A stretch of 64,000 nt of DNA from an uncultured Maribacter sp. (GTDB taxonomy: Bacteria; Bacteroidota; Bacteroidia; Flavobacteriales; Flavobacteriaceae). Shown one piece after another: positions 2,664-20,033 of this stretch. Numbering within the stretch: the stretch's first letter is position 1; each line of letters opens with the position of its first letter. The notes beneath the pieces are model-generated. The model made no database searches and was not told where the DNA came from. It saw only the letters and a program-made list of their open reading frames with translations. The position numbers and the translations under genes were made by a program. Location: positions 248,001 through 312,000 of the forward strand of contig CANNFY010000003.1 in NCBI GenBank assembly GCA_947504045.1, in the 5' to 3' direction.

Positions 2664-3532
2664 TTTTGTTTGGGTACTAATTTTGGCTTTTTAAAATGGT
2701 AAAATATTCCAAAAAGAGAAACAAAAGCGGTTACTAAAAAAAATAACATGCTTACGCTTATAGATACTGTTTCGTTTAATTGTAAAAGAGTTGCACCGTA
2801 AAAAAAAGTAACTTCTCTACTTCCTATTCCGCCAATAGTTAGTGGAATAACGGAAACTATAGACGAAATTAAGAAGATTAATAAATATCCAATAGTATCT
2901 GTATTAACCCCAAGTGCTTTTAATAAGAATAAAATACTGGCTAATTGCGCTATTTGTACTAGAGCAGAAAAAATAAATGAAGTCCAGAAAATGGGTAAAG
3001 TATAGCTGAAGAATTTTTTAGTTAAAAACCAAAATGTAATAGTACTCAAAAATATTCCTAAAATAAATATTGATTTAAAATTCTGTAACCAATCTATTGG
3101 TATAAAAAGAGCTAAAAAACAGGTGTATATAAATAAAAGTAATAGCCCACTTAAGCGATCTAAAACTAAAACAGAAACTACTTTTTTAGTAGCAATATTA
3201 AATTTCTTTTTTATTACAAACCCTTTATAAGCATCTCCTCCAATTCCTCCGGGTAAGAATAAATTATAGAACATACCTAAAAGGTAAAGTTTTAGATTAC
3301 TTTTTTCAGATATATTTATTTTAAGTTGTTGAAAATAAAGGTTTAACCTAACAGAAGCAATAATTTTAGAAATTATAAATAGTAGTATTGCAAGTACAAC
3401 AAAAATTGGTTTTGCATCTTTTAATACATCGCCTATTTCTTTACTATCTATTTTTGTAAAAATAAAATAAACGAGAATAGCACTAATAATAATTTTTAGA
3501 GCTGTTAATAAGTGTTTAGGAGGCTTTGTCAC
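2660..3532 (-). CDS. Lysylphosphatidylglycerol synthase TM-region / UPF0104 family membrane protein
   Basis: 290 residues, about 8 transmembrane helices, with the family landmarks LFLPGGIGGDAYKGF (about residues 92-106) and IGGIGSREV (about 234-242). Proteins of this family are flippase-like and often accompany lipid glycosyltransferases. The start is GTG at 3532. An in-frame TAG lies directly upstream (3533-3535), so GTG is the earliest possible start and no ATG alternative exists before the first helix. The first 17 nt overlap the end of the GT2 gene, so the two are translationally coupled. Function in lipid or glycan translocation is inferred. Confidence 0.82.
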   Translation of the reverse strand: MTKPPKHLLTALKIIISAILVYFIFTKIDSKEIGDVLKDAKPIFVVLAILLFIISKIIASVRLNLYFQQLKINISEKSNLKLYLLGMFYNLFLPGGIGGDAYKGFVIKKKFNIATKKVVSVLVLDRLSGLLLLFIYTCFLALFIPIDWLQNFKSIFILGIFLSTITFWFLTKKFFSYTLPIFWTSFIFSALVQIAQLASILFLLKALGVNTDTIGYLLIFLISSIVSVIPLTIGGIGSREVTFFYGATLLQLNETVSISVSMLFFLVTAFVSLFGIFYHFKKPKLVPKQN

Positions 3533-9410: not shown

Positions 9411-10097
9411 ATGACAGATTTAGAAAAAACCTTATCTATTATTAGTAAAAAGCCAATAGCTATTATTGATGCTAAATTTTCTCTAGATATGTTTACTCCT
9501 ATAGATTTATCTGTATCAAACACAAGGCTTAAAAACTATAATATAACTTCGGCAAAAGGATGCCAAGATTATATAGATAAAGTTTTAAATGATAGTAATG
9601 CTAAAATTGCTTTTGGAGGATACTTAGAGCATAGAAGTTTATACTCTAACACACCAAGTTTTAATAGTAGTGTAGATTTTATACGCAACATTCATTTAGG
9701 ATTAGATATATGGGCACCAACAGGTACATCTATAATAACTCCTATGGATGGAAAAATACATAGTTTTAAAAATAATGCAGCTTCCGGCGATTACGGACCC
9801 ACTATAATTTTAGAACATTGTATAAATAAGATTGTTTTTTATACTCTTTACGGACATTTATCCATTTCTTCTTTAGAACAATTGTATGTTGGTAAAGAGT
9901 TTAAAAAAGGTGAAATTCTTGCTGAAATGGGGGCTCCAGAAGTTAATGTTAACTATGCTTCACATTTACATTTCCAAATTATAAAAGATTTACAAGGTAA
10001 TATTGGAGATTACCCGGGTGTGTGTTCTAAAGCAGATGTAGAATATTATTCTACAAATTGTCCTAACCCTAATTTATTACTTTCCTTAGAGGTTTAG
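9411..10097 (+). CDS. M23-family metallopeptidase (LytM-like)
   Basis: 228 residues with the complete LytM zinc site: HLGLDIW (about 95-101, His and Asp ligands), TLYGHLS (about 144-150) and HLHFQII (about 184-190). Such enzymes usually cut peptidoglycan peptide bridges. No signal peptide or membrane helix is visible at the N-terminus (MTDLEKTLSIISKKPIAIID), which is unusual for a wall-acting enzyme and leaves location and substrate open. The stop at 10095-10097 lies 3 bp before the conserved leader of small-protein copy 1. Confidence 0.85.
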   Translation: MTDLEKTLSIISKKPIAIIDAKFSLDMFTPIDLSVSNTRLKNYNITSAKGCQDYIDKVLNDSNAKIAFGGYLEHRSLYSNTPSFNSSVDFIRNIHLGLDIWAPTGTSIITPMDGKIHSFKNNAASGDYGPTIILEHCINKIVFYTLYGHLSISSLEQLYVGKEFKKGEILAEMGAPEVNVNYASHLHFQIIKDLQGNIGDYPGVCSKADVEYYSTNCPNPNLLLSLEV

Positions 10098-10100
10098 ATC

Positions 10101-10275
10101 CCGATTAAAAACACATTTTTTCGGTAAGAGGTTTTTAGGTGTGTGTACGTTTATCGAGCATTTTTTGCACTTTATCTGTATTTGTGTCAGTTACCGAAAA
10201 ATAAGGGGTTTTCAGCGTTTTGTAACCTAGCTGCATACGGCTTTGGGCGTTTTAATTATATATAAAACGCAAGTC
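10101..10275 (+). promoter_or_regulatory. Conserved 175-bp leader of small-protein copy 1
   Basis: Almost identical to 11814-11988 and 17405-17579, each exactly 175 bp before an ATG, and homologous to 18375-18528. It contains an 11-bp inverted repeat TTTTTCGGTAA (10117-10127) / TTACCGAAAAA (10191-10201). Inside that lie two 9-bp direct repeats TACGTTTAT (10146-10154) and GCACTTTAT (10167-10175), offset 21 bp. A block TTTTCAGCG follows at 10209-10217, then an 8-bp-stem hairpin GCGTTTTA (10247-10254) / TAAAACGC (10263-10270) that ends 5 nt before the start codon. The direct repeats resemble a LytTR-family operator. Whether the rest acts as DNA or as RNA leader is not known. Confidence 0.8.
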
Positions 10276-10497
10276 ATGAAAACTATCTTAACTTTAATCT
10301 TTGTTCTTTTTATCGGAGTAGCTGCACAAGCACAAAACAACACGCAAGAAGTTAAAGTGGTTACTATAGAAAAGACAATTGTAAAAGAAACTACAGTTAA
10401 GAAAACGGAAGTTGCACGTTTATATAAGCGTTCTAACGCTAGAGTTAAAAAAGCTATTAAGTTTACTACAAAAAGAGACAGAGCTAAATTGGCTTAA
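10276..10497 (+). CDS. Small secreted basic protein, repeat family copy 1 (73 aa)
   Basis: Start at ATG 10276. An in-frame TTG at 10243 would translate through the upstream hairpin and put a non-signal sequence ahead of the signal peptide, so it is rejected. Residues 1-20 (MKTILTLIFVLFIGVAAQAQ) are a clean signal peptide. The mature part of about 53 residues is Thr/Val/Lys rich and strongly basic at the end, with the family motif VARLYKRSNARVKKAI then FTTKRDRAKLA. Compared with copies 2 and 3 it is nearly identical up to RLYK and then differs at many bases. There is no cysteine and no known domain. Function unknown; a cell-surface or periplasmic role is inferred only from the signal peptide. 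Confidence 0.8.
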   Translation: MKTILTLIFVLFIGVAAQAQNNTQEVKVVTIEKTIVKETTVKKTEVARLYKRSNARVKKAIKFTTKRDRAKLA

Positions 10498-10532
10498 TCT
10501 TTACCTACTTTTGTATAATATATAAGCCTTGT

Positions 10533-11126
10533 TTAAGTAGATTGCGTTTTGCCTAAAAGTGTTTTAGCTTTTCTATTCAAGATTTTTATTCTAATCCACA
10601 TCATGGCATATATTAAAATAGCTATCCATGAAAAAGTAGTTAGTAAGCTTTTTAAGATGGTAAGTGTGCTAGATAGTAAAACAAAAGATTTAGATATTTC
10701 TACAGACTCTGTAATCATTAAGATAATGCATATATTTTCAAAATAATCAAACACCATCGCTAAGAATGGAATACATAAAAGCAATCCTATATATGTAGTA
10801 TCGTTTTTTGTTATTTTGATAAGACGAAATAAAAGACTACTTAAAAAGAGAGCCAAAAGAAAAGGATACAAAACATCTAAGAAAGTTAATTGCGGAAATA
10901 TATAAATATTTTTAGTTTGATTATCTAATCTACTTATTATTACTTCTGTTGTAGATAAAGAATAGCCTAAATTTTGAAGGTCAAATGCTTTAGTTCCAAT
11001 TTGATGGTTAATTTTTGGAAAAGTATATACCATCATTACAAGTAGAATAACGTGACTTGAAACAAATGAAATACATATTTTTTTTACAGAAGAAGTTTTT
11101 AAAAGAATAGAATTTAAAATAGACAT
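10533..11126 (-). CDS. Hypothetical four-helix membrane protein (197 aa)
   Basis: Starts at ATG 11126. Four hydrophobic segments are visible (about residues 17-37, 80-103, 110-135 and 155-178), with a basic C-terminus (RIKILNRKAKTLLGK). I recognise no family. It is 64 bp downstream of the Crp/Fnr gene on the same strand and may be its target or operon partner. Its stop lies 35 bp from the convergent small-protein copy 1. Confidence 0.7.
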   Translation of the reverse strand: MSILNSILLKTSSVKKICISFVSSHVILLVMMVYTFPKINHQIGTKAFDLQNLGYSLSTTEVIISRLDNQTKNIYIFPQLTFLDVLYPFLLALFLSSLLFRLIKITKNDTTYIGLLLCIPFLAMVFDYFENICIILMITESVEISKSFVLLSSTLTILKSLLTTFSWIAILIYAMMWIRIKILNRKAKTLLGKTQST

Positions 11127-11190
11127 ACAATTTTTTTATAAAGCAAAAATGCTCCATTAAAAAATTGTGCCCATTAACAAATGATAAGAG

Positions 11191-11760
11191 TTACGATTGT
11201 GTTCTTAGTCTGCTTAAAGAAATAGTTGTTATACCTAAATAAGAAGCAATATCTGTATGTGGTACAAGATTCTCAATATTTGGAAATTGTTTTCTAAGCC
11301 TTTCTAATCGGTCTTTACCTTTAAGAGAGGCCAATCCTATTTCTTTTTGAACTTTTGTCATTAGTTCCTTCCTTAATACAGTATTAGCAAAATGTCTTAT
11401 TTCTAGGTCTTCAATCATTAACCTTTCTAACTCGTCAGCATTAATTGTTGCAATTTCTATATCTGTTAATGCTCTTATATTTAATATAGATTTTCCTTCT
11501 AAACTTCTTGTTGTGTTTGGGGATAGGATAGAGCCAGACATAAAGAAGGAAATAGTTATATCTTCTCCTTCTGGTGTATAAAGGAAACTCTTGCAAATAC
11601 CTTTAATTAAAAAGTACTCTAAATTATTAGTTTGACCAACCTTAGCTATTGGTTCTCCTTTTTTTAGAAAACTATAAGTAACCAATTTATTTATTTTTTC
11701 TAAAGATGAAATAGGTAGGGGAGTTACAGAATTAATAATAGGAGTAATCTTGTCTTTCAT
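11191..11760 (-). CDS. Crp/Fnr-family transcriptional regulator
   Basis: 189 residues: an N-terminal cyclic-nucleotide-binding-type jelly roll (about 20-115, with FLKKGEPIAKVG and YFLIKGICKSFLYTPEGEDIT) and a C-terminal winged helix (about 145-187, LVPHTDIASYLGITTISLSRLR). It has no Fnr-type N-terminal cysteine cluster, so oxygen sensing by an Fe-S cluster is unlikely. The protein is short, as in many Bacteroidota members whose ligand is unknown. It is divergent from small-protein copy 2: its ATG is 53 bp from the start of that copy's leader. Regulation of the neighbour is possible but unproven. Confidence 0.88.
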   Translation of the reverse strand: MKDKITPIINSVTPLPISSLEKINKLVTYSFLKKGEPIAKVGQTNNLEYFLIKGICKSFLYTPEGEDITISFFMSGSILSPNTTRSLEGKSILNIRALTDIEIATINADELERLMIEDLEIRHFANTVLRKELMTKVQKEIGLASLKGKDRLERLRKQFPNIENLVPHTDIASYLGITTISLSRLRTQS

Positions 11761-11813
11761 TTTTTTAAGGTAGTAATCTTATCGTTTTTCACAAAAGAAA
11801 AGCATCTTATTTT

Positions 11814-11988
11814 CCGATTAAAAGCACTTTCTTTCGGTAAGAGGTTTTTAGGTGTGTGTACGTTTATCGAGCATTTTTTACACTTTATCTGTATTTGTGT
11901 CGATTACCGAAAAATAAGGGGTTTTCAGCGTTTTGTAACCTAGCTACATACGACTTTGGGCGTTTTAATTATATATAAAACGCAAGTC
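11814..11988 (+). promoter_or_regulatory. Conserved 175-bp leader of small-protein copy 2
   Basis: Same length and block order as the copy 1 leader. Direct repeats TACGTTTAT (11859-11867) and ACACTTTAT (11880-11888) again lie 21 bp apart. The inverted-repeat left arm is shortened by a base change (TTTCGGTAA, 11832-11840) against TTACCGAAAAA (11904-11914). The start-proximal hairpin is at 11960-11983. Differences from copies 1 and 3 are scattered single bases, none of which changes spacing. Confidence 0.8.
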
Positions 11989-12210
11989 ATGAAAACTATC
12001 TTAACTTTAATCTTTGTTCTTTTTATCGGAGTAGCTGCACAAGCACAAAACAACACGCAAGAAGTTAAAGTAGTTACTATAGAAAAGACAATTGTAAAAG
12101 AAACTACAGTTAAGAAAACGGAAGTTGCACGTTTATATAAAAGAACAAATGCTAAAGTAAAAAAGGCGTTAACTTTTACTACTAAAAGAAATAAAGCAAA
12201 ATTAGCTTAA
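11989..12210 (+). CDS. Small secreted basic protein, repeat family copy 2 (73 aa)
   Basis: ATG 11989. The protein is identical to copy 3 although their DNA differs at several synonymous positions, which points to selection on the protein. It has a signal peptide of 20 residues, then a Thr/Val/Lys segment and the basic motif VARLYKRTNAKVKKAL and FTTKRNKAKLA. The stop codon region overlaps the stop of the convergent GyrI-like gene by 9 bp (12202-12210). Function unknown. Confidence 0.8.
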   Translation: MKTILTLIFVLFIGVAAQAQNNTQEVKVVTIEKTIVKETTVKKTEVARLYKRTNAKVKKALTFTTKRNKAKLA

Positions 12211-12693
12211 AACTTTATCCTTAATAGGAATCCAAATTTCTTCTTCAGAATCATCCGAATTGTTTTTATACTTTTCTCCTAGTATTTCAAAATGTGGTCT
12301 TTGGTCTAAATTATATTTAGATTGTGGTAGCCAAGTGCCAAATATGTATTGCATGGTTTTAGGAAAGTCGCTTGTTTTTCCTTTATGAATAAAAACAGCG
12401 TACATGCCTCCTGGTAAAATAAAAGGTTCCATTGCATTTGGTATAGCATTATAATCTGTTACTTCGGCAGCAGCCCACTTAGTAAAAACTGTATGCGGAT
12501 TAAAGTTTTTAAAATCTAAAGAAGCATCATAAACCTGAATAGAATATAAAGTAGCGTTTACTACATTAGAAATCTCTTTTCTTTGTTGCATAAAACTTTT
12601 CCATAGCGTAGGGGTTTTATTATCTGCCAAAGACATTTTTAATTGTTTGCCAATTAATTTTTTGTCTTTACTAGTTTCTATTCTTGGAATCAA
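12202..12693 (-). CDS. GyrI-like / AraC effector-binding-domain protein
   Basis: 163 residues forming a stand-alone small-molecule-binding domain, recognised by the N-terminal pattern MIPRIETSKDKKLIGK, AAAEVTDYNAIP, PGGMYAVFIHKG and the C-terminal EEEIWIPIK. The start is TTG at 12693. An in-frame TAA lies 21 bp upstream, and the first ATG (codon 20) would delete the conserved first strand. The gene is 11 bp downstream of the DUF2490 gene, so it is probably the last gene of the imelysin cluster. Homologues bind hydrophobic or planar ligands; the ligand here is unknown. Confidence 0.8.
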   Translation of the reverse strand: MIPRIETSKDKKLIGKQLKMSLADNKTPTLWKSFMQQRKEISNVVNATLYSIQVYDASLDFKNFNPHTVFTKWAAAEVTDYNAIPNAMEPFILPGGMYAVFIHKGKTSDFPKTMQYIFGTWLPQSKYNLDQRPHFEILGEKYKNNSDDSEEEIWIPIKDKVLS

Positions 12694-12704
12694 ACTTACT
12701 AATC

Positions 12705-13373
12705 TTAAAAATTAACAAAGCTTATAATATTAAACTGATCGCGGCTAGTAGTTTCAAAAAACTGATTCATATAACCAGCCTCTAAACGTATGTTTTTATT
12801 TATTTTATATCCAATGCCAGTATAAACTCTATTTCTGTCAAAAATAGAAGTTTTTGTATTTAAGAAAATTTCATTGTAAGCAGAAAAATAGCATTTGTCC
12901 TTTTCTTTACTAAAAGGAATGTTTACTGCTAAAAAGTATCTAAAACGCATTTTATAATCTTCTGCAACAAAGCGTTGCTCAAACCTGTATCTATGATTTA
13001 TAGATACAATTCCGATATTCTGTTTAGATGTAAATTGTTGAAAAATACGATGCTCATTAACGGTTAGTTTTTCATCGGTATTGGCTATGTAGTTTTCAGA
13101 AGTAATATAGCCATAGCCTAATAAGATATTATTTTTGTTTTCATTAAACGAGTAGCCTAAACCTGTTCTTAGTAGTAATTGTTCTAAATCTCCTATAGCA
13201 TTATAGCTTCGTAGTTGTACTTCGTTATGAAGATTCCATTTACTATTTAATTTTTTATTTCCAATATAGATAAGCCAGTTACCAAAATTACTATCCTGAC
13301 TTTGTACATAAGCCGGGAATGCTAAGGTTATTAAAAGTAGTAATACAGGAATCTTATTCTTTATATTTTTCAT
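12705..13373 (-). CDS. DUF2490 outer-membrane beta-barrel-like protein
   Basis: 222 residues with a signal peptide (about 1-25, ending AYVQSQ) and alternating beta-strand patterning to the C-terminal NIISFVNF, which ends in an aromatic residue as outer-membrane barrels do. The DUF2490 hallmarks GNWLIYIGNKKLNSKW, WNLHNEVQLR and HRYRFEQRF are visible. The gene lies 89 bp downstream of an imelysin gene on the same strand. Context suggests a role linked to surface iron handling, but the family function is not established. Confidence 0.82.
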   Translation of the reverse strand: MKNIKNKIPVLLLLITLAFPAYVQSQDSNFGNWLIYIGNKKLNSKWNLHNEVQLRSYNAIGDLEQLLLRTGLGYSFNENKNNILLGYGYITSENYIANTDEKLTVNEHRIFQQFTSKQNIGIVSINHRYRFEQRFVAEDYKMRFRYFLAVNIPFSKEKDKCYFSAYNEIFLNTKTSIFDRNRVYTGIGYKINKNIRLEAGYMNQFFETTSRDQFNIISFVNF

Positions 13374-13462
13374 ATAAAATTAGTACTTAGGTAGTTTATT
13401 AAGTGTCTAATATAATAACATGATTTTGAAAAACAATAAACAATTAGATTTATACTAATTGT

Positions 13463-14530
13463 TTAATCCCCATCATTGTCGGTAGGTAACACGGTAACCG
13501 ATAAAGTGCTAGCAGCATCTACAGAAAAATATCTAATTAATTCTGTTAAAGAAGTGTGTAATTCTACAACATTTGGATCATTGTTTAAAATGGCACTATA
13601 AAGGCTGCTATTTATAGCATCAATATCATTATATACTTGAATAAATGCGGAGTTAATTTCATTAGAAATTTCTTCAGATTCTGCAATTTCATCTACTAAT
13701 TCAGAAAAATTAACAGTACTTGTAGAATAGGTATACTCCACCTCTTGAATACTACTTTTTATAATGTCTAAAGAGGTTTCACTTCTAAATGCTTGTAGTA
13801 TTTCTAAATCAATGTTTTCGGATGTTTCTAAGCCAGCTGGTTTGCCTAATTTAGTAACTTTAATAATATCTAAAAGGTTAATTAATTGATTAAATGCTAA
13901 GCAGCGTGCATCTACAGTACAGCTTATACTTTTAGAGTTCGCAAATTCATCTTTATAGCCATCTTCCCAAAAACTAATTAATAGGTTGGTTTGTCTTAAA
14001 ACTTCTTCAGCAACAGCTAATGCATAATTTACTCTAAAAGTATCTTCTTCTAATAATAAAAAAGCGGTAGTACTATCTTGAACATTAAAAAATAAATATT
14101 CTAAAGTACCTAAACCTTTTGTAACCGTACTTTTTGTTTCTAAATACGCTGTGTTGTAAATAGTTTGCTCCTTAATATTGTCTTCAATTAACTCTGTGTT
14201 TATAGGAAAATTAAAAATATTGGTGTCGTAAAAGCCTAATTTAACAGGGTTTATATTATAAGTGCTTGTTTTGGCAAAAGAAGTAGCACAAGAGCGCCAT
14301 TGTTCTCTTAAGTTTTCGAAATTGGCATTTGTAGGATTTGTTTTAAAATCTTCTATAGCAAGTATCTGGTTTTCTATAGATAATTTTAATGCGGTATTAG
14401 CTGGAGCTATATTTACATTGTAATAGTCTTCGTAAAAAGTATCTATTATTTCTGTAGTTTCATTGTCGTTTTTACAAGAAAAAAAATATAGTGTAGATAT
14501 TGCAATTAAAGTGTATGCTATTTTTTTCAT
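13463..14530 (-). CDS. Imelysin-family lipoprotein (second copy)
   Basis: 355 residues. A lipoprotein signal (MKKIAYTLIAISTLYFFSC, Cys at 19) is followed by an imelysin-type helical domain (about 35-350): EDFKTNPTNANFENLREQW, a central TLEYLFF segment in the position of the GxHxxE iron-binding motif of canonical members, and KPAGLETSENIDLE. The canonical GxHxxE motif is replaced by GLGTLEYL, so metal binding may differ from that of the upstream imelysin. It is 1 bp from the di-haem oxidoreductase stop, so the two are translationally linked. Related proteins are periplasmic or surface iron-regulated proteins; the biochemical role is unsettled. Confidence 0.82.
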   Translation of the reverse strand: MKKIAYTLIAISTLYFFSCKNDNETTEIIDTFYEDYYNVNIAPANTALKLSIENQILAIEDFKTNPTNANFENLREQWRSCATSFAKTSTYNINPVKLGFYDTNIFNFPINTELIEDNIKEQTIYNTAYLETKSTVTKGLGTLEYLFFNVQDSTTAFLLLEEDTFRVNYALAVAEEVLRQTNLLISFWEDGYKDEFANSKSISCTVDARCLAFNQLINLLDIIKVTKLGKPAGLETSENIDLEILQAFRSETSLDIIKSSIQEVEYTYSTSTVNFSELVDEIAESEEISNEINSAFIQVYNDIDAINSSLYSAILNNDPNVVELHTSLTELIRYFSVDAASTLSVTVLPTDNDGD

Positions 14531-14531
14531 G

Positions 14532-15938
14532 TTATAAAGAATTTAAAAAAAGTAAAAGTTGTTCCCTTTCTTCAAGGGGTAATTGCATAAAATTATTTTT
14601 AGAGGTTTCTGCTTCTCCTCCATGCCATAAAATAGCTTCTTCAATATTTCTTGCTCTTCCATCATGCAATAAGAAAGTATGCTCATTTACTAACTCAATT
14701 AATCCTAATCCCCATAGTGGTTGGGTTCTCCATTCCGAACCTGTAGCTAAAAAGTCGGCTCTATTATCGCTAAGTTCTTCTCCCATGTCGTGCAATAAAA
14801 AATCGGAATAAGGTCGTATAGTTATATTTTCTAGTTGAGGTAAAAAAGAATAAGTGCTAGTAGTAAAGTTGTTTATATGGCAACTTACACAAGCAAGATC
14901 GTTAAACAGTTTTTTTCCTTTTAAGACATCTATATCTGTAAAGTCTCTACGAACGGGTACGGATATAGCAGCTTGGTAGGTCATTAATCGACTAAATTGA
15001 GTGTCTGGTACTTCAACATTATCTCCATCATTTATACCATTAAACAGTTCTGTACAATCTACACCGTCCGGACAGTTTTCTTCCGGAAAAATAGAGGAGG
15101 TAAGTCCCATGTCTCCATTAAGAGCTGCAGCAACTTGTTGCTCAAGTGTTGGCTGGTTTGCTTTCCAACCAAATTTACCTATAGTAGATTTGTTTTCTTT
15201 TACATTCCATACATAGTTGGCTTTTCCGGATATTCCGTCGCCATTAGCGTCATTTTCGTCTGCATTAGCAAGAATACTAGCTTCGCTTAGTGCATCAATA
15301 AAACCAAGACCAATTACTTGTTGTCCAATTCTTGGAGATTGTTCTGCTGCAAGACCGCCATAATTTTCATTTACAATAGTATATGTAGGTTTTCTAAGTT
15401 CGTAAGGTGTTCCATCTGGATAAGTGCCTGTAATACTTTCGAACGATACATTTATTTCTGCTTCTGGTTCTATACCTAAATTAGAATCGTCTTGTAATTG
15501 ATCCCCATAAATAGGGTTACTTATTGGCCCTGTAATTAAATCGTTTCCATTACTTAATCGTAATAAGAAACCTTCTGATCCTGCACCGTTTTCTAATAAC
15601 GGTTCGCCTCTACCATCTCTTAAATGGCATGCGCTACATGCTCTAGCATTAAAAATAGGACCTAAACCATCTCTTGATGTTGTAGTTGCTGGTGCAGACA
15701 CCCAACTTTGGTCAAAAATGGCGTTTCCGACACCAAAAAAAGAAAGTTCTAGTTCTGATAGTTCTGGTATTGCTCTACCAAAAGCTTTATCTGCGGTAAA
15801 TGCCTCTATGGATAAATGGGATACTAAATTTTCTTCACCTTCTTCATATGTAATTGCAATATATTCTTCTTCCGATATATCATCTGTACTACATGATGTA
15901 ATAAATAAAAGAAATAAAAAGTAGTAGGTATATTTCAT
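14532..15938 (-). CDS. Di-haem thiol-oxidoreductase family lipoprotein (DUF1111)
   Basis: 468 residues from ATG 15938, giving MKYTYYFLFLLFITSC with the lipobox Cys at residue 16. A longer reading from ATG 16010 runs through a transcription terminator and buries the lipoprotein signal, so it is rejected. Two c-type haem sites are visible: CSACH (in ARACSACHLRDGRG) and CVSCH (in LACVSCHINNF). The family resembles cytochrome c peroxidases and is regularly found beside imelysins in Bacteroidota and Proteobacteria. An electron-transfer role in periplasmic iron redox chemistry is inferred from this pairing. Confidence 0.9.
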   Translation of the reverse strand: MKYTYYFLFLLFITSCSTDDISEEEYIAITYEEGEENLVSHLSIEAFTADKAFGRAIPELSELELSFFGVGNAIFDQSWVSAPATTTSRDGLGPIFNARACSACHLRDGRGEPLLENGAGSEGFLLRLSNGNDLITGPISNPIYGDQLQDDSNLGIEPEAEINVSFESITGTYPDGTPYELRKPTYTIVNENYGGLAAEQSPRIGQQVIGLGFIDALSEASILANADENDANGDGISGKANYVWNVKENKSTIGKFGWKANQPTLEQQVAAALNGDMGLTSSIFPEENCPDGVDCTELFNGINDGDNVEVPDTQFSRLMTYQAAISVPVRRDFTDIDVLKGKKLFNDLACVSCHINNFTTSTYSFLPQLENITIRPYSDFLLHDMGEELSDNRADFLATGSEWRTQPLWGLGLIELVNEHTFLLHDGRARNIEEAILWHGGEAETSKNNFMQLPLEEREQLLLFLNSL

Positions 15939-15969
15939 ATATTTTATAAAAGAGGCAAAATTAAAAAGA

Positions 15970-16002
15970 AAAACTGAAGCCGCAATTAAGGACTTCAGTT
16001 TT
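15970..16002 (-). terminator. Rho-independent terminator between first imelysin and di-haem gene
   Basis: A perfect 10-bp stem AAAACTGAAG (15970-15979) / CTTCAGTTTT (15993-16002) with a 13-nt loop. On the minus strand it is followed by a T-rich run. It sits 31 bp after the stop of the first imelysin and 32 bp before the chosen start of the oxidoreductase. It probably reduces expression of the downstream genes relative to the first imelysin. Confidence 0.8.
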
Positions 16003-16032
16003 ATAAACATAATAAGATGTTTAACTAGTAAA

Positions 16033-17247
16033 CTAGTTAATTGTAATAGCTATTCCTAAGGCTGCTGCTGCGTCTGAAATAGCTGTACCTTGTGTTTTTA
16101 GAGCAGAAGATAATTGTCCTGCAGGGCCGTTAGAACCTAAAGTTTCTTCGCTAATAATTTCATCAAAAGTTTTTCCTAAACCTAATAATGTACTTAATTT
16201 AGATAAGGTATCTGCTGCTTTGTCTTCTAAGTCTGATGCAGTTTCTGCACTTTCCTCATTAACTAAATCAATTAAAGAAGTACCAGTTACAGTAGAACCA
16301 GACGAAGTAGTGTAGCTACCAACAATAATATTGTTTATACCATGTACATTTGCCCACATATCTTGGTTTGTATTATCTGAAAAACAAGAGTGCTCGTTTT
16401 CTTGCCCTTCATCAATAGCAGGATCTATTCTTTCTAAAGCAACTTCACCATTAGAAATAAAACCAATGCCATTTAATATGTTAGTTAAAGCCTCTTCTTC
16501 ATCTAAAGCTTCAAAAGTAGTTCTGTACGAACCTCCTTCTGCCCAAGTATCGTTTAAATCACTTAGATCATTAATTAATAAATCGGTTACAATTTCTAAA
16601 TATGCTATTCTTCTTGACGCAAATTCTTCACTAGTGTAATCTGTAAATGGTCTGTTACCAGATTCTGAATAGTTATCGTAAGTATCTGTTTCTGCATTGT
16701 AGTTTAAATCTTGTCCCCAAAGTAAAAACTCAATTGCATGCCATCCTGTAGAAATATTATCATCTTTACCTTCTTCGTTTTTTGCAATAATGTTTGCTTC
16801 TGTTAACTCAAAAGTAGTATCTCCAATTAACCCATTTTGGACTGTGCCTCCAGTTCCGTCAGCTACATAATCTATATAGCCTTCATCTAATGGCCAAGCA
16901 TTTATTTGGCCTTCTGTACCCAGTAAATCTTCATTGTCAATTGGGCCATTAGCTTCTCTGTAAGCTTCTGTTTGTCCGTAAAAATCTCTTGCGTATAACC
17001 ATGCATCTTGAGCGGCTTCTAAAGTAGCATCGCTAGGGGATGCGATAAAAGCATTTATTGCTTCTTGCATTGTAACAGCTGAGGTATATGCATCATTATA
17101 ATTTGCCGATGCAATAGTTGCATAGGTTGCTATAAAATCTGAATTAGTTACAGCATTTTCTTGTGTAGTACCATTATCATCATCGGAACAAGATGCCAAA
17201 GAGATTATAATGCTTAGTGTAAAAATTTTTAATAGGTTAATTTTCAT
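16033..17247 (-). CDS. Imelysin-family lipoprotein (first copy, canonical motif)
   Basis: 404 residues. The lipoprotein signal MKINLLKIFTLSIIISLASC is followed by SDDDNG. Ser-Asp-Asp-Asp after the lipid Cys matches the flavobacterial lipoprotein export signal for surface display. The helical imelysin domain contains the iron-binding-type motif GWHAIEFLLWG (about residue 185, GxHxxE) and the N-terminal AWLYARDFYGQTEAYR and INAWPLDEGYIDY blocks. This is the first gene of the cluster, directly downstream of tandem repeats that may be an iron operator. Proteins of this family (IrpA, ICMP and EfeO relatives) are iron-regulated; the exact activity is debated. Confidence 0.9.
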   Translation of the reverse strand: MKINLLKIFTLSIIISLASCSDDDNGTTQENAVTNSDFIATYATIASANYNDAYTSAVTMQEAINAFIASPSDATLEAAQDAWLYARDFYGQTEAYREANGPIDNEDLLGTEGQINAWPLDEGYIDYVADGTGGTVQNGLIGDTTFELTEANIIAKNEEGKDDNISTGWHAIEFLLWGQDLNYNAETDTYDNYSESGNRPFTDYTSEEFASRRIAYLEIVTDLLINDLSDLNDTWAEGGSYRTTFEALDEEEALTNILNGIGFISNGEVALERIDPAIDEGQENEHSCFSDNTNQDMWANVHGINNIIVGSYTTSSGSTVTGTSLIDLVNEESAETASDLEDKAADTLSKLSTLLGLGKTFDEIISEETLGSNGPAGQLSSALKTQGTAISDAAAALGIAITIN

Positions 17248-17255
17248 TTTTTTTA

Positions 17256-17339
17256 TTTATTTAGATTTATTAAAAATAAAGCGCAAATATAAAATTGAAA
17301 CTTTAAACCTACAAGTTTATTTAGATTTATTAAAAATAA
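17256..17339 (-). promoter_or_regulatory. Tandem 24-bp direct repeats upstream of imelysin (candidate metal-regulator operator)
   Basis: The same 24 bp, TTTATTTAGATT followed by TATTAAAAATAA, occurs at 17256-17279 and 17316-17339, exactly 60 bp apart. Each unit is an imperfect palindrome (TTATTT at one end, AAATAA at the other). The first unit lies 8 bp before the imelysin start codon and the second about where a promoter would be. Position, pairing and the iron-linked genes behind it suggest a Fur- or DtxR-type operator. This is inference, since the region is AT-rich. Confidence 0.5.
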
Positions 17340-17404
17340 TATTTTGTAGTATATGATATGTTTTGTGTTTTTAATTTGTATAGTAGGGTATAGGTGTTTT
17401 TTTT

Positions 17405-17579
17405 CCGATTAAAAACACATTTTTTCGGTAAGAGGTTTTTGGGTGTGTGTACGTTTATCGAGCATTTTTTGCACTTTATCTGTAATTGTGTCGATTACCG
17501 AAAAATAAGGGGTTTTCAGCGTTTTGTAACCTAGCTACATACGGCTTTGGGCGTTTTAATTATATATAAAACGCAAGTC
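17405..17579 (+). promoter_or_regulatory. Conserved 175-bp leader of small-protein copy 3
   Basis: Third near-identical leader. The inverted repeat TTTTTCGGTAA (17421-17431) / TTACCGAAAAA (17495-17505) brackets the direct repeats TACGTTTAT (17450-17458) and GCACTTTAT (17471-17479). The start-proximal hairpin is at 17551-17574. It lies in the 332-bp gap between the imelysin start and the small-protein ATG; the left part of that gap holds the tandem 24-bp repeats and about 65 bp with nothing recognisable. Confidence 0.8.
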
Positions 17580-17801
17580 ATGAAAACTATCTTAACTTTA
17601 ATTTTTGTTCTTTTTATCGGAGTAGCTGCACAAGCACAAAACAACACACAAGAAGTTAAAGTGGTTACTATAGAAAAGACAATTGTAAAAGAAACTACAG
17701 TTAAGAAAACGGAAGTTGCACGTTTATATAAAAGAACAAATGCTAAAGTAAAAAAAGCATTAACTTTTACTACTAAAAGAAATAAAGCAAAATTGGCTTA
17801 G
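17580..17801 (+). CDS. Small secreted basic protein, repeat family copy 3 (73 aa)
   Basis: ATG 17580. The product is identical to copy 2. The DNA differences between the two (for example near the end, where copy 2 stops with TAA and this copy with TAG) are synonymous or in the stop codon. The 20-residue signal peptide, Lys/Thr/Val segment and C-terminal TKRNKAKLA are as in copy 2. Its stop overlaps that of the convergent GNAT gene (17798-17801). Function unknown. Confidence 0.8.
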   Translation: MKTILTLIFVLFIGVAAQAQNNTQEVKVVTIEKTIVKETTVKKTEVARLYKRTNAKVKKALTFTTKRNKAKLA

Positions 17802-18253
17802 TTTAAATCTTTTTTAAAGCAAACACTATTATGAGCCTTAACGTATTCTCCAAAATTTGGCGTTAATTTATATCCGTTTTTTTTGTAAAAAGCTATAGCA
17901 TATGGTTTTTCTTTAAGTGTTTCTAATATGCATTTTTTATATTCTAGTTTTTTGCTCCATGTTTCTAACTCGTTTAATATTATAGAGGCTATTCCTTTTC
18001 CTCTATAAGCTTTTGAAACAAACATTCTTTTTATTTCAACTTCGTCTTTAGAATATTCTTTAATACATCCGCATCCTACAGCAATAGTGTTATCTACATA
18101 TGCAATAACAACATGTTTTATCTTATTTATGTTATTAAGTTTCTCATAAAAGGATTCTTCTTCTTTGTAATAGACACCTAGATCAATATCTAATTCGCGA
18201 ACCAAGTTTTTAAAATCTAAGTTTTCAGAATCGGTCTTTTTAACAGTAATCAT
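17798..18253 (-). CDS. GNAT-family N-acetyltransferase
   Basis: 151 residues with the GNAT acetyl-CoA-binding block RMFVSKAYRGKGIASIIL (about 91-108, RGKGIA loop) and the C-terminal strand and helix ETLKEKPYAIAFYKKNGYK. It transfers acetyl groups to an amine; the substrate is unknown. No signal peptide is present, so it is cytoplasmic. It is convergent with small-protein copy 3 with overlapping stops and divergent from the copy 4 leader. Confidence 0.88.
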   Translation of the reverse strand: MITVKKTDSENLDFKNLVRELDIDLGVYYKEEESFYEKLNNINKIKHVVIAYVDNTIAVGCGCIKEYSKDEVEIKRMFVSKAYRGKGIASIILNELETWSKKLEYKKCILETLKEKPYAIAFYKKNGYKLTPNFGEYVKAHNSVCFKKDLN

Positions 18254-18374
18254 AAACTAGATTGTTTTGTAATAAATAGTAGAATGTAAAGCTAAAATAT
18301 TTTTACATACTAGATGTTATTTTTGGTTTTTATGTTTTTTTAAGACTTAAAAGTATAGTTAAAATACCTAAAAA

Positions 18375-18528
18375 TAAGACGAGTTTATTTTAGGCTGTTT
18401 ACGTTTATCGATACAATTTATTACTTCATCTTATATAGGTTTAAGTAACCGAAAATACCTGTTTTTCAGCGGTTTTATGTTCTCTTGGCTTTTGTTCACT
18501 TTAGCTTTGAGTAAACAAAATACTTGTT
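18375..18528 (+). promoter_or_regulatory. Diverged leader of small-protein copy 4
   Basis: Overall sequence differs from copies 1-3, but the blocks and spacing are kept. TAAGA and TTTTAGG come first. TACGTTTAT (18400-18408, followed by CGA) has a second element TTACTTCAT (18421-18429) again 21 bp on. TAACCGAAAATA is at 18446-18457, 46 bp after the first repeat (45 in the others), and TTTTCAGCG is at 18463-18471, 63 bp after it as in the others. The outer inverted repeat and the start-proximal hairpin are not kept. The retained blocks are therefore the best guess at the functional sites. Confidence 0.65.
18502..18509 (+). promoter_or_regulatory. Candidate Bacteroidota -7 promoter box of copy 4
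   Basis: TAGCTTTG matches the TAnnTTTG -7 consensus of Bacteroidota promoters, 19 bp before the ATG. Copies 1-3 have GGCTTTG or GACTTTG at the corresponding place, which lacks the TA. No convincing -33 TTG at the usual spacing was found, so the call is tentative. If correct, the 21-bp direct repeats would lie roughly 80-115 bp upstream of the transcript start, where an activator could bind. Confidence 0.35.
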
Positions 18529-18780
18529 ATGAAAACAGTTGTTACATTATTATTAGTAGTTTTTATGGGTGTAGTTGGCTTAGCAAAAAACCAACCTGCA
18601 TTAGAAAAAGTTAGTACCTTAAAAAAAGGGGTAATATTAGAAAATACAACATTAATATCTTTTAAAAATTTAGATTTTAATACAAACAAACAAATAACAC
18701 GTTTATATATGTATAAAAATTCTAGAGTTTTAAGAGAGCTTTCTTTTAGAACAAAAAGGAATAAAACTAGACAAGCATAA
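18529..18780 (+). CDS. Small secreted basic protein, repeat family copy 4 (diverged, 83 aa)
   Basis: ATG 18529. The signal peptide MKTVVTLLLVVFMGVVGLA aligns with that of copies 1-3. The middle is different and longer. The C-terminus keeps the family pattern: TRLYMYKNSRVLRELSF then RTKRNKTRQA, against ARLYKRTNAKVKKALTF and TTKRNKAKLA. The shared pattern is RLY, three residues, N, two, V, three, L, one, F, one, TKRN. This shows the C-terminal half is the conserved functional part of an older family, of which copies 1-3 are a recent expansion. Confidence 0.75.
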   Translation: MKTVVTLLLVVFMGVVGLAKNQPALEKVSTLKKGVILENTTLISFKNLDFNTNKQITRLYMYKNSRVLRELSFRTKRNKTRQA

Positions 18781-18793
18781 GAGTTTTAACAGT

Positions 18794-18823
18794 TAGCATA
18801 TGATAGGTTTTTAAAATATGCTA
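18794..18823 (+). terminator. Weak hairpin after small-protein copy 4
   Basis: TAGCATAT (18794-18801) / ATATGCTA (18816-18823) form an 8-bp stem with a 14-nt loop, starting 13 bp after the copy 4 stop. The following run GTTTAAT is only modestly T-rich, so termination efficiency is doubtful. Confidence 0.4.
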
Positions 18824-19008
18824 GTTTAATCTATAATATTTGTAATTCAGCGATATACTAAGGGTATATTATTTATAGTAGTTACCTTTAAAAAGTTGTA
18901 TTTATTTAAAGCAATAAAATTTATAAATAGGTTTTATTTATAAAATGGCATAATAATTGAATGTAAGTTTATAACTACTGTTTAATGGTAGTAAAAAAAT
19001 AAAAAATA

Positions 19009-19125
19009 ATGATAGCACTTCTTGTAATAATCTCGATAGTATTTATTGGTTCAATGGTTTTTAAATACCAAAAGGAAAAAGCGGCTTTACGTCCTATTAA
19101 AGTACCAACAAAAAAAAGAAATTAA
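19009..19125 (+). CDS. Putative 38-aa single-pass membrane microprotein
   Basis: ATG 19009 to TAA 19123-19125. The product begins MIALLVIISIVFIGSMVFKY, a clean hydrophobic helix, then has a basic tail (QKEKAALRPIKVPTKKRN). The Lys/Arg-rich tail after one N-terminal helix is the usual design of small membrane proteins. The stop is 14 bp from the stop of the convergent sensor kinase. The frame is short and could be chance, but composition (helix then basic tail, no rare codons) argues for a gene. No function can be assigned. Confidence 0.5.
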   Translation: MIALLVIISIVFIGSMVFKYQKEKAALRPIKVPTKKRN

Positions 19126-19139
19126 TAGAAATTTACGCC

Positions 19140-20033
19140 TTATACAACCGGGTGTAATTGTTGCCCTATTTCTTGAAATTTAATAATATAGTTTGTTCCT
19201 TTTTTAGAAACATCTCTTATAACAGAGCCTTTTAATTGCCTTGTAAGATTATATATTAATTTTAACCCTAAAGATTTTGTGTTTTTGTGGTTTATAGTTT
19301 CAGGAAAACCAACACCGTTATCTCCTATAGTTAGTACATATTCTTTATTAAGCTCTTTTTTTATAGCAATATGTATTTCTCCTTCAGAATCGTCTACAAT
19401 ACCATATTTTAAAGCATTTGTAATAGTTTCATTAATTAATAGTCCTAAAGGTATAGCAGTATCAATACCTAATTTAATGTCTGTAATATCTATAGTAAGT
19501 TTTACTTTGTTTTCTATTCCTTTTATTGACTTTATTAGATATTGACTTAATTCTTCTACGTAGGTTTTATATTCTATTTTAGAAAGGTCATTGCGCATAT
19601 ACAACATTTCATGTATCATAGCCATAGATATAACACGGTCTTTGGTTGCTTGTAATAATACTTTTACAACATCTTCTTCTGTATTTCTACTTTGTAGACT
19701 TAATAGACTTGAAACGGTTTGAAGATTGTTTTTTACTCTATGGTGAATTTCTTTAAGTAGTGTTTCTTTTTCTAGTAATTTTTTGGCTAATAGGGTATTG
19801 TTTAGAGATAGATTATTATTGGAAATTGTTACACTTTTTTTTAATAGAATTGAGTTGATAAAAATTAGAATTCCAAAAATTAAAAATAATACAGGAACAA
19901 TTAAATCTACTTTAAAGACAAAAAAGCTTAAGCCCGAAAATAGAATAGCTACTAATGATAAAATATAATTAAGCTTTAAAAAAGAGTTGGTTTTTTTTAA
20001 TTGCTTTTTATTATCTAGCATTGATTTTTGCAT
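19140..20033 (-). CDS. Membrane sensor histidine kinase, HisKA_2 type
   Basis: 297 residues. Two closely spaced transmembrane helices (about 22-42 and 45-66) are followed by a HisKA_2 phosphoacceptor block (LLKEIHHRVKNNLQTVSSLLSLQSR, quoted here in two parts: LLKEIHHRVKNN and LQTVSSLLSLQSR; about residues 92-116). The HATPase domain has NETITNALKYG, IGDNGVGFP and SLGLKLIYNL. There is no PAS, GAF or periplasmic sensing domain. No response regulator is adjacent, so it is an orphan. It sits next to small-protein copy 4, whose leader carries LytTR-like repeats; a link is speculative. Confidence 0.88.
   Translation of the reverse strand: MQKSMLDNKKQLKKTNSFLKLNYILSLVAILFSGLSFFVFKVDLIVPVLFLIFGILIFINSILLKKSVTISNNNLSLNNTLLAKKLLEKETLLKEIHHRVKNNLQTVSSLLSLQSRNTEEDVVKVLLQATKDRVISMAMIHEMLYMRNDLSKIEYKTYVEELSQYLIKSIKGIENKVKLTIDITDIKLGIDTAIPLGLLINETITNALKYGIVDDSEGEIHIAIKKELNKEYVLTIGDNGVGFPETINHKNTKSLGLKLIYNLTRQLKGSVIRDVSKKGTNYIIKFQEIGQQLHPVV

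What the first reader, a model, noticed from the sequence alone, without database searches (positions are those of the whole stretch)
10101..18780. Four-copy family of small secreted basic proteins, each behind a homologous leader
Within 8.7 kb there are four genes for 73-83 residue exported proteins with a conserved basic C-terminus (RLY...N..V...L.F.TKRN). Leaders of 154-175 bp share block order and near-exact spacing in all four. Three copies are near-identical, with the ATG exactly 175 bp from the leader start. No transposase or terminal repeats accompany them, so they are not an insertion sequence. A non-coding leader conserved as strongly as the coding part suggests the leader is part of the function. 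The family has no domain I know. The four genes are separated by unrelated genes, which argues against simple tandem duplication.
Basis: partly seen in the sequence, partly recalled or inferred. Interest (0 to 1): 0.85.

Follow-up and report, generated by a model that had tools for sequence, protein, structure and literature searches.

The report
Multi-copy exported basic proteins, shared promoter
A group of marine bacteria keeps several near-identical copies of a tiny exported basic protein, each behind the same elaborate DNA control region, and viruses of such bacteria carry versions of the protein; its job is unknown but its conservation suggests it matters.

Summary
Four genes (ATG at 10276, 11989, 17580, 18529) encode 73-83 aa proteins with an export-signal-like start and a cationic C-terminus (family median +9 over 28 residues), each behind a ~175-bp leader. 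The family (E<1e-10) is in 56 of 299 sampled family genomes (40 genera). Named relatives include Maribacter, Zobellia, Arenibacter and Cellulophaga. The frame is under purifying selection (median dN/dS 0.19). Most of the leader shows no RNA structure: boxes A-F lie at near-fixed spacing without conserved pairing. It contains a 9-N12-9 direct repeat 8 bp upstream of a TTGTCA-like hexamer, the layout of LytTR response-regulator operators. Only the last ~50 nt hold a covarying inverted repeat. In 23 genomes, 36 of 37 strong leader matches lie at a family gene, one at a contig end. A HisKA_2 kinase beside the array is in 55 of the 56 genomes, but these look like one clade, and the exception lacks it in an intact locus. 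Unexpected: Maribacter and Cellulophaga phages encode homologues. Best reading: a dosage-amplified, LytTR-type-controlled exported cationic effector. Regulator and target are inferred.

The parts
10101..10275 (+). Leader (regulatory region) of copy 1, boxes A-F plus proximal inverted repeat
10146..10154 (+). Box C, TACGTTTAT, first 9-mer of the 9-N12-9 direct repeat
10167..10175 (+). Box D, GCACTTTAT, second 9-mer, 21 bp after box C
10184..10189 (+). GTGTCA, -35-like hexamer (family consensus TTGTCA) 8 bp after box D
10193..10202 (+). Box E, ACCGAAAAAT
10211..10217 (+). Box F, TTCAGCG
10247..10270 (+). Inverted repeat GCGTTTTA-N8-TAAAACGC ending 5 nt before the ATG; arms covary across genera
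10276..10497 (+). Copy 1: 73-aa exported basic protein
11814..11988 (+). Leader of copy 2
11989..12210 (+). Copy 2: 73-aa exported basic protein
17405..17579 (+). Leader of copy 3
17580..17801 (+). Copy 3: 73-aa exported basic protein, same protein sequence as copy 2
18355..18528 (+). Leader of copy 4 (divergent; C-D box at 18400)
18529..18780 (+). Copy 4: 83-aa divergent exported member
19140..20033 (-). HisKA_2/HATPase sensor kinase beside the array; only a candidate partner. 297 aa and about 2 TM (by eye) here; many relatives have about 405 aa and about 6 TM (by eye)

Best explanation
Each unit is a promoter/operator plus a small effector gene. A LytTR-type response regulator binds the 9-N12-9 repeat (boxes C-D), other proteins bind A-B and E-F, and all copies are switched on together from a promoter whose -35-like TTGTCA lies 8 bp downstream of box D. 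The transcript has a short 5' UTR ending in an AU-rich hairpin next to the start codon. The product is exported by Sec; its acidic linker (median -2) and cationic C-terminal module (median +9, RLYK..N..VKKaLsF.TKRNkaKlA) then act at the cell envelope on a conserved partner. Several near-identical copies give dose rather than variety. Shown: coding constraint, a hydrophobic signal-like N-terminus in 146 of 146 members, near-fixed box spacing, leader-gene linkage, phage homologues. Inferred: LytTR as the regulator class, which regulator and sensor, induction, start site, envelope site, partner.
For: Median dN/dS 0.19 in 433 of 488 pairs, all <1. Hydrophobic N-terminus in 146 of 146 and median +9 in the last 28 residues (the start was taken as the first MK of each ORF). 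Near-fixed spacings: C-D 21 bp in 44 of 50, A-B 19 in 42 of 57, B-C 26 in 34 of 41, D-E 25 in 40 of 44, E-F 18 in 32 of 54. Box C fits the AgrA-type consensus (recalled) at 8 or more of 9 positions in 85 of 132 leaders, random 9-mers 1.0%; box D at 7 or more in 102 of 132, random 6.5%. TTGTCA at exactly +8 after D: 5 or more of 6 letters in 40 of 132 and 4 or more in 78 of 132; shuffled segments 0.85 and 6.5 per 132. Published LytTR operons: 9-bp repeats, mostly 12 bp apart, 4-11 bp before the -35 (PMC6193735, passages). No conserved RNA pairing over the whole leader. 36 of 37 strong leader hits at a family gene, one at a contig end; none in 8 genomes without the family. The genome's next-best match to the kinase sits close to a LytTR gene (C2:129751 and C2:127940). 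Copies cluster by species in two of five genus members, as gene conversion would give.
Against: No expression or binding data. Box D usually lacks the G of the consensus, and I chose the 9-mer register. No clear -7 element TAnnTTTG was seen (by eye). None of the 14 LytTR genes of the genome lies on the window's contig. Kinase and regulator RR-A co-occur with the family in what looks like one clade, so shared ancestry can explain it; G178 has the family next to SecA with only 0.2 kb between and no kinase there or elsewhere at E<1e-70. The genus tree is only partly concerted. Several phage homologues and one host paralogue lack a signal peptide, so the C-terminal module may have a cytoplasmic role. 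AlphaFold is confident only for the signal helix (mean pLDDT 68).
Confidence: 0.42

Rival explanations
1. Peptide signalling loop: the processed C-terminus is a pheromone sensed by the neighbouring kinase, which through a LytTR regulator activates the peptide genes (works like ComCDE or Agr, with a Sec-exported precursor).
For: LytTR-like operator found only at the peptide genes among strong hits; kinase of about 6 TM (by eye) beside the array in many relatives and in 55 of 56 genomes with the family; phages of such hosts carry homologues.
Against: Peptide and receptor usually diversify; here the motif is conserved across 40 genera and copies stay alike. Co-occurrence is clade-confounded. The window's kinase has lost about four TM segments. 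Non-secreted phage forms fit poorly.
Confidence: 0.15
2. Cationic antimicrobial or competition peptide, many copies giving output.
For: Median net +9 C-terminus and export signal; variable genes between copies.
Against: Purifying selection and strong motif conservation; no one gene cluster, and so no shared immunity or transporter gene, beside the family in all 61 loci (most frequent: MsrA in 42); present in all 56 genomes whose RR-A is at least 90% identical, unlike patchy bacteriocins.
Confidence: 0.12
3. The conserved boxes bind a regulator of another class (not LytTR); everything else as in the best explanation.
For: Boxes A and B (CGATAAA, TCGGTAAG) resemble reverse complements of C and D (CGATAAACGT, GGATAAAGTGC) (by eye), which would also fit an inverted-repeat binder; no regulator identified.
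Against: The 9-N12-9 spacing, the AgrA-consensus fit and the 8-bp distance to TTGTCA come together.
Confidence: 0.25
4. The leader is a structured RNA regulator (riboswitch-like).
For: Inverted repeat before the ATG: perfect stems of 7 or more in 35% of 124 leaders against 2% of single-base shuffles, with covarying arms.
Against: RNAalifold 0 pairs on 55 leaders; z near 0 between -150 and -40; no Rfam match here at gathering threshold; near-fixed spacing without helices.
Confidence: 0.03

Closest known systems
LytTR-controlled peptide systems (ComE/Blp, Agr, HdrRM/BrsRM; names partly recalled, layout from PMC6193735 passages)
   Same: Works like: direct repeats 9 bp long, 12 bp apart, 8 bp upstream of a -35-like hexamer; small exported products
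   Different: Gram-negative Bacteroidota; Sec-type signal instead of double-glycine leader or AgrD processing; HisKA_2 kinase; no LytTR gene on the same contig here; extra boxes A, B, E, F
phrog_26162 (phage family, 59 aa, unknown function)
   Same: Shares the C-terminal module: E=5.9e-7 with a relative's family protein, 4e-4 with the host paralogue at C1:590681
   Different: Window copy 1 does not reach E=1 against it; in the own genome copy 4 reaches only 0.25, and at E<=1 the model also rings in 7 of 14 control genomes
Enterobacterial multi-copy small periplasmic stress proteins (YhcN/BhsA family, Asr; recalled, not compared)
   Same: Works like: small, exported, several paralogues, inducible; Asr is basic
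   Different: No sequence relation tested; different regulators and phylum

Membership tests
LytTR-type operator (leader) | Two 9-bp direct repeats 11-13 bp apart | tested here: met
   C-D start distance 21 bp in 44 of 50 leaders scoring for both; register chosen by me
LytTR-type operator (leader) | 9-mers fit [TA][AC][CA]GTTN[AG][TG] (recalled) | tested here: inconclusive
   Box C 8 or more of 9 in 85 of 132; box D 8 or more in only 50 of 132
LytTR-type operator (leader) | Repeats 4-11 bp upstream of a -35 element | tested here: inconclusive
   TTGTCA-like hexamer (4 or more of 6) at +8 in 78 of 132, 6.5 expected; promoter activity unknown, no -7 element seen by eye
LytTR-type operator (leader) | Bound by a LytTR regulator | not testable with these tools
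   14 LytTR genes in the genome, none on the window's contig
Peptide pheromone two-component system | Kinase, regulator and peptide encoded together | tested here: not met
   Kinase adjacent; no LytTR gene on this contig and no response regulator seen between 8.6 and 25.4 kb of the window (by eye); relatives' loci not fully annotated; kinase absent in G178
Insertion sequence or MITE | Terminal inverted repeats, transposase, or copies dispersed without the gene | tested here: not met
   36 of 37 strong leader hits at the gene, one at a contig end (150 candidates scored per genome); no transposase seen by eye among the listed window ORFs; no terminal repeats
Riboswitch or structured leader | Covarying conserved helices across the element | tested here: not met
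   0 pairs on 55 leaders; only the proximal inverted repeat covaries
Known Pfam or NCBIfam protein family | Score above curated cut-off | tested here: not met
   Best for copies 1 and 4: DUF3316 16.8 bits, cut-off 24.4; GLPGLI 14.4, cut-off 50

The most novel reading that the evidence does not exclude
A Bacteroidota counterpart of Gram-positive LytTR peptide circuits: a clade-wide, multi-copy exported peptide with its own operator, sensed in most members by the adjacent membrane kinase, and captured by phages of several lineages as exported and cytoplasmic mimics that manipulate host behaviour or exclude rival phages.
Probability: 0.13. Interest if true: 0.88.

Novelty: new variant of a known kind. 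Interest (0 to 1): 0.6.

Why it matters
A gene unit present in all 56 sampled genomes with the closest RR-A (1-9 matches each, 40 genera), with a ~115-bp multi-box control region found strongly only at this family, has no Pfam or NCBIfam name. If the LytTR reading holds, it gives Maribacter, Zobellia and Cellulophaga a tractable regulated export circuit. Phage homologues in three named phage genera, with exported and non-exported forms, make it a possible new point of phage-host conflict, testable in existing laboratory phage-host pairs.

Tried and rejected
RNA element: Rfam, RNAalifold and windowed folding give no structure upstream; only the proximal hairpin stays. Mobile element: no transposase or terminal repeats seen; tblastn of copy 1 gave no match at E<=1e-3 in 72,556 plasmid records nor in 50,697 phage records; the phage homologues came up only with a relative's protein and profiles. 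Regulator by co-occurrence: LytTR L070 does not track the family (143 of 299 genomes at E<=1e-45); RR-A (L071) at 90% identity or more is in exactly the 56 genomes with the family, but it is present in 243 of 299 at E<=1e-60 and the step looks like a clade boundary, so it proves nothing. In the nine-genome LytTR comparison only 8 of 21 regulators of G080 and 4 of 27 of G030 were fetched, so absences there are not evidence. Phage promoter: Colly/Molly show CCGTTTAAC-N12-CCGTTTAAC before their homologue, which first looked like the host operator; with the host matrix it scores 1.4 (2.4 on the other strand; a second such site 4.4) against host median 35.5 and a window background of up to 5.5, and the second site precedes another phage gene, so I reject shared regulation. 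Regulon: a C-D-like site at C7:6455 has no other box that I could see and no family gene; over all hits up to 3 mismatches the pattern is no commoner than its control (19 and 19). Weak leader hits between 1e-8 and 0.05, among them G080:C19:337332 at 3.4e-5, were not examined one by one. Weak family hits outside the 56 (41 genomes, E 1e-7 to 1e-3): of 12 such genomes re-examined, all but G058 show hits mostly confined to the N-terminal signal part or within long ORFs; G058 has real distant copies with rearranged boxes. Structure: AlphaFold confident only for the signal helix, so no fold search was run. Literature: six searches listed nothing that I recognised as this family; supplements were not open.

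Rows dropped before counts: leaders scoring under 16 of 24 (10 of 142); dN/dS pairs with saturated or very small dS (55 of 488); leader alignments A4 and A6 use 55 and 42 diverse leaders, window copies included, picked from the 91 non-redundant ones; family members longer than 95 or shorter than 65 aa were left out.
Full report
OBSERVATION. The window is G000:C3:248001-312000 of a 3.46-Mb genome. Four small genes lie at 10276-10497, 11989-12210, 17580-17801 and 18529-18780. Copies 1 and 3 each match copy 2 at 96% over 300 nt of leader and gene; copy 4 is divergent. In the own genome a DNA search with copy 1 finds copies 2 and 3, part of copy 4's leader and one short stretch at C1:590764, which lies in an unsecreted paralogue.

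FAMILY. All 8 of 8 genus genomes carry it. A profile of 12 members matched 97 of 299 genomes of the family at E<=0.001; 56 of them, in 40 genera, have E<1e-10, with 1-9 matches each. Of the other 41 genomes I re-examined 12: all but one show hits mostly confined to the signal part or inside long ORFs; G058 has distant true copies. A scan of public genomes found 192 relatives, 78 loci kept, with names such as Maribacter, Zobellia, Arenibacter, Cellulophaga, Kriegella, Eudoraea, Ulvibacterium and Muriicola. Copies 1 and 4 score below every cut-off in Pfam and NCBIfam. By sequence the profile's best solved-structure match is a kinesin light chain entry at E=0.001 with no stretch passing on its own, which I take as chance.

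PROTEIN. I took the first MK of each ORF as start. In 146 members of 69-88 aa all have a hydrophobic stretch after it; the last 28 residues carry a median net charge of +9 (range 4 to 11), the linker -2. M1, K2, R48, Y50, F63 and T65 of copy 1 are invariant in 55 diverse members. Of 488 same-length pairs (not independent), 433 gave usable dN/dS with median 0.19, all below 1. AlphaFold was confident only for the signal helix.

LEADER. From 144 distinct leaders and an ungapped alignment of 132 of 142 the consensus is: A CGATnAAA, B TCGGTAAG, C taCGTTnATCGA, D CACTTTATCC, E ACCGAAAAAT, F CAGCGA. Spacings are near-fixed among leaders that score for both boxes: A-B 19 bp in 42 of 57, B-C 26 in 34 of 41, C-D 21 in 44 of 50, D-E 25 in 40 of 44, E-F 18 in 32 of 54. 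C and D are 9-mers separated by 12 bp. Box C fits the AgrA-type LytTR consensus (recalled) at 8 or more of 9 positions in 85 of 132 leaders; random 9-mers from the same leaders do so in 1.0%. Box D reaches 7 or more in 102 of 132 (random 6.5%). At exactly +8 after D, TTGTCA is matched at 5 or more of 6 letters in 40 of 132 and at 4 or more in 78 of 132; shuffled segments give 0.85 and 6.5 per 132, and the next best offsets have 5 and 26. In the passages I read of PMC6193735, LytTR regulatory operons have 9-bp repeats, mostly 12 bp apart, 4-11 bp upstream of the -35; AgrA repeats lie just upstream of its promoters (PMC4227749, passages). Caveats: the register is my choice, D usually lacks the consensus G, and I saw no clear -7 element.

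NOT RNA, EXCEPT THE END. RNAalifold gives 0 pairs for 55 leaders. Folding z-scores average -0.68 for -180..-120, -0.21 for -150..-90, -0.14 for -120..-60 and -0.16 for -100..-40, but -1.53 for -75..-1 and -1.91 for -50..-1 (130 leaders). In the last 45 nt, perfect stems of 7 or more occur in 35% of 124 leaders against 2% of single-base shuffles and 2.5% of two control regions, with arms that change together (GCGTTTTA/TAAAACGC, GGGTTA/TAACCC, GTTAT/ATAAC, GGTTTTAT/ATAAAACC). RNAalifold did not pick it up, perhaps because it is poorly aligned. This fits a start site below box E and a hairpin next to the start codon; the start site is inferred.

LEADER AND GENE GO TOGETHER. A sequence-only model of the boxes was run on 23 genomes: 14 with strong family members, G058 and 8 without (150 candidates scored per genome). 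There were 37 matches at E<1e-8, all in the 14; 36 lie just upstream of a family match listed or 26 and one at a contig end. The 8 genomes without the family had no match below 7e-4. Weaker hits in the 14 were not examined one by one, apart from those that fall at known members. So in these genomes the full control region was found strongly only at this family.

SURROUNDINGS. I fetched 60 stretches around matches, plus the window. Of the 61, MsrA lies in 42, the HisKA_2 kinase in 34, M23 peptidase in 31 and SecA in 30; 10 have none of six context genes and hold copies elsewhere in the genome, some in tandem. Variable genes lie between copies. The kinase has orthologues at E<1e-70 in 55 of the 56 genomes; two further genomes with weaker matches (G196, G226) lack the family; matches at E<=1e-30 occur in 146 of 299. 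The exception, G178, has SecA 0.2 kb from two family genes and no kinase between, so the kinase is not indispensable. RR-A, a LytTR regulator elsewhere in the genome, is 90-100% identical in exactly those 56 genomes, 85% in G058, about 75% and 63% beyond. This looks like a clade boundary, so it is not independent evidence. A second LytTR regulator does not track the family. The genome's next-best match to the kinase (C2:129751) lies close to a LytTR gene (C2:127940).

PHAGES. Copy 1 itself finds nothing in 50,697 phage records at E<=1e-3. A relative's protein matched 31 records at E<=10; the 19 with E<1 are all Maribacter (8) or Cellulophaga (11) phages, some listed twice under two accessions; the Maribacter hits are at 2e-7 and span signal peptide and C-terminus, the Cellulophaga ones are weak one by one (0.06-0.9). 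With the 55-member host profile Colly/Molly score 58 bits, two IMG/VR proteins 41-42, phi38:1 and phi40:1 33, phi18:1, phi17:1 and phi12:1 25. phrog_26162 matches a relative's protein at 5.9e-7. Molly/Colly and phi18:1-type proteins have a signal-like N-terminus; phi38:1-type and the other IMG/VR ones do not (by eye). The two hosts, M. forsetii and C. baltica, were not themselves searched; Maribacter and two Cellulophaga genomes carry the family. Phage copies do not carry the host operator. In the passages I saw, PMC8776804 describes Molly and Colly on M. forsetii without this gene, and PMC11946311 likewise for phi18:1.

READING. Coding constraint, likeness of copies and breadth of conservation favour a dosed effector with one old partner over a diversifying toxin or pheromone. 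Its presence in Maribacter and Cellulophaga phages suggests that the partner matters in infection; the non-exported phage forms leave a cytoplasmic partner open. In a genus tree copies cluster by species in G004 and G007 but by position in G003/G006, so conversion is at most partial.

Noticed in passing
L321:2122-2319, L322:2501-2698 (Maribacter phages Colly_1, Molly_1): 65-aa exported homologue of the window family in Maribacter phages, annotated hypothetical.
   Followed up: partly
L328:3944-4123, L331:3974-4126, L318, L320, L336, L339: Cellulophaga and uncultivated phages encode short proteins with the C-terminal module, several without signal peptide.
   Followed up: partly
L035:1477-1638 (G000 C1:590681): Unsecreted small host paralogue of the C-terminal module, no leader; weak matches (E 0.0025-0.008) in five other genus genomes were not inspected.
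   Followed up: partly
9411-20033: The MsrA/M23 to kinase/SecA interval is a hotspot: different species hold different genes between the family copies.
   Followed up: partly
13463-17247: Imelysin - di-haem oxidoreductase - imelysin cluster lies between copies 2 and 3.
   Followed up: no
19140-20033: The window's kinase is 297 aa with about 2 TM (by eye), many relatives have about 405 aa and about 6 TM; part of the sensor seems lost.
   Followed up: no
L121:8128-8343 (G178): SecA and two family genes are neighbours without the kinase that usually lies between.
   Followed up: partly
L321:2013-2044 and 3298-3329: Phage Colly repeats TCCGTTTAACG-like units at a 21-bp period before two genes; not significantly like the host operator.
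   Followed up: yes
L298 and L310 (G058): Distant copies whose leader has D, A/B-like, E and F boxes in a different order.
   Followed up: partly
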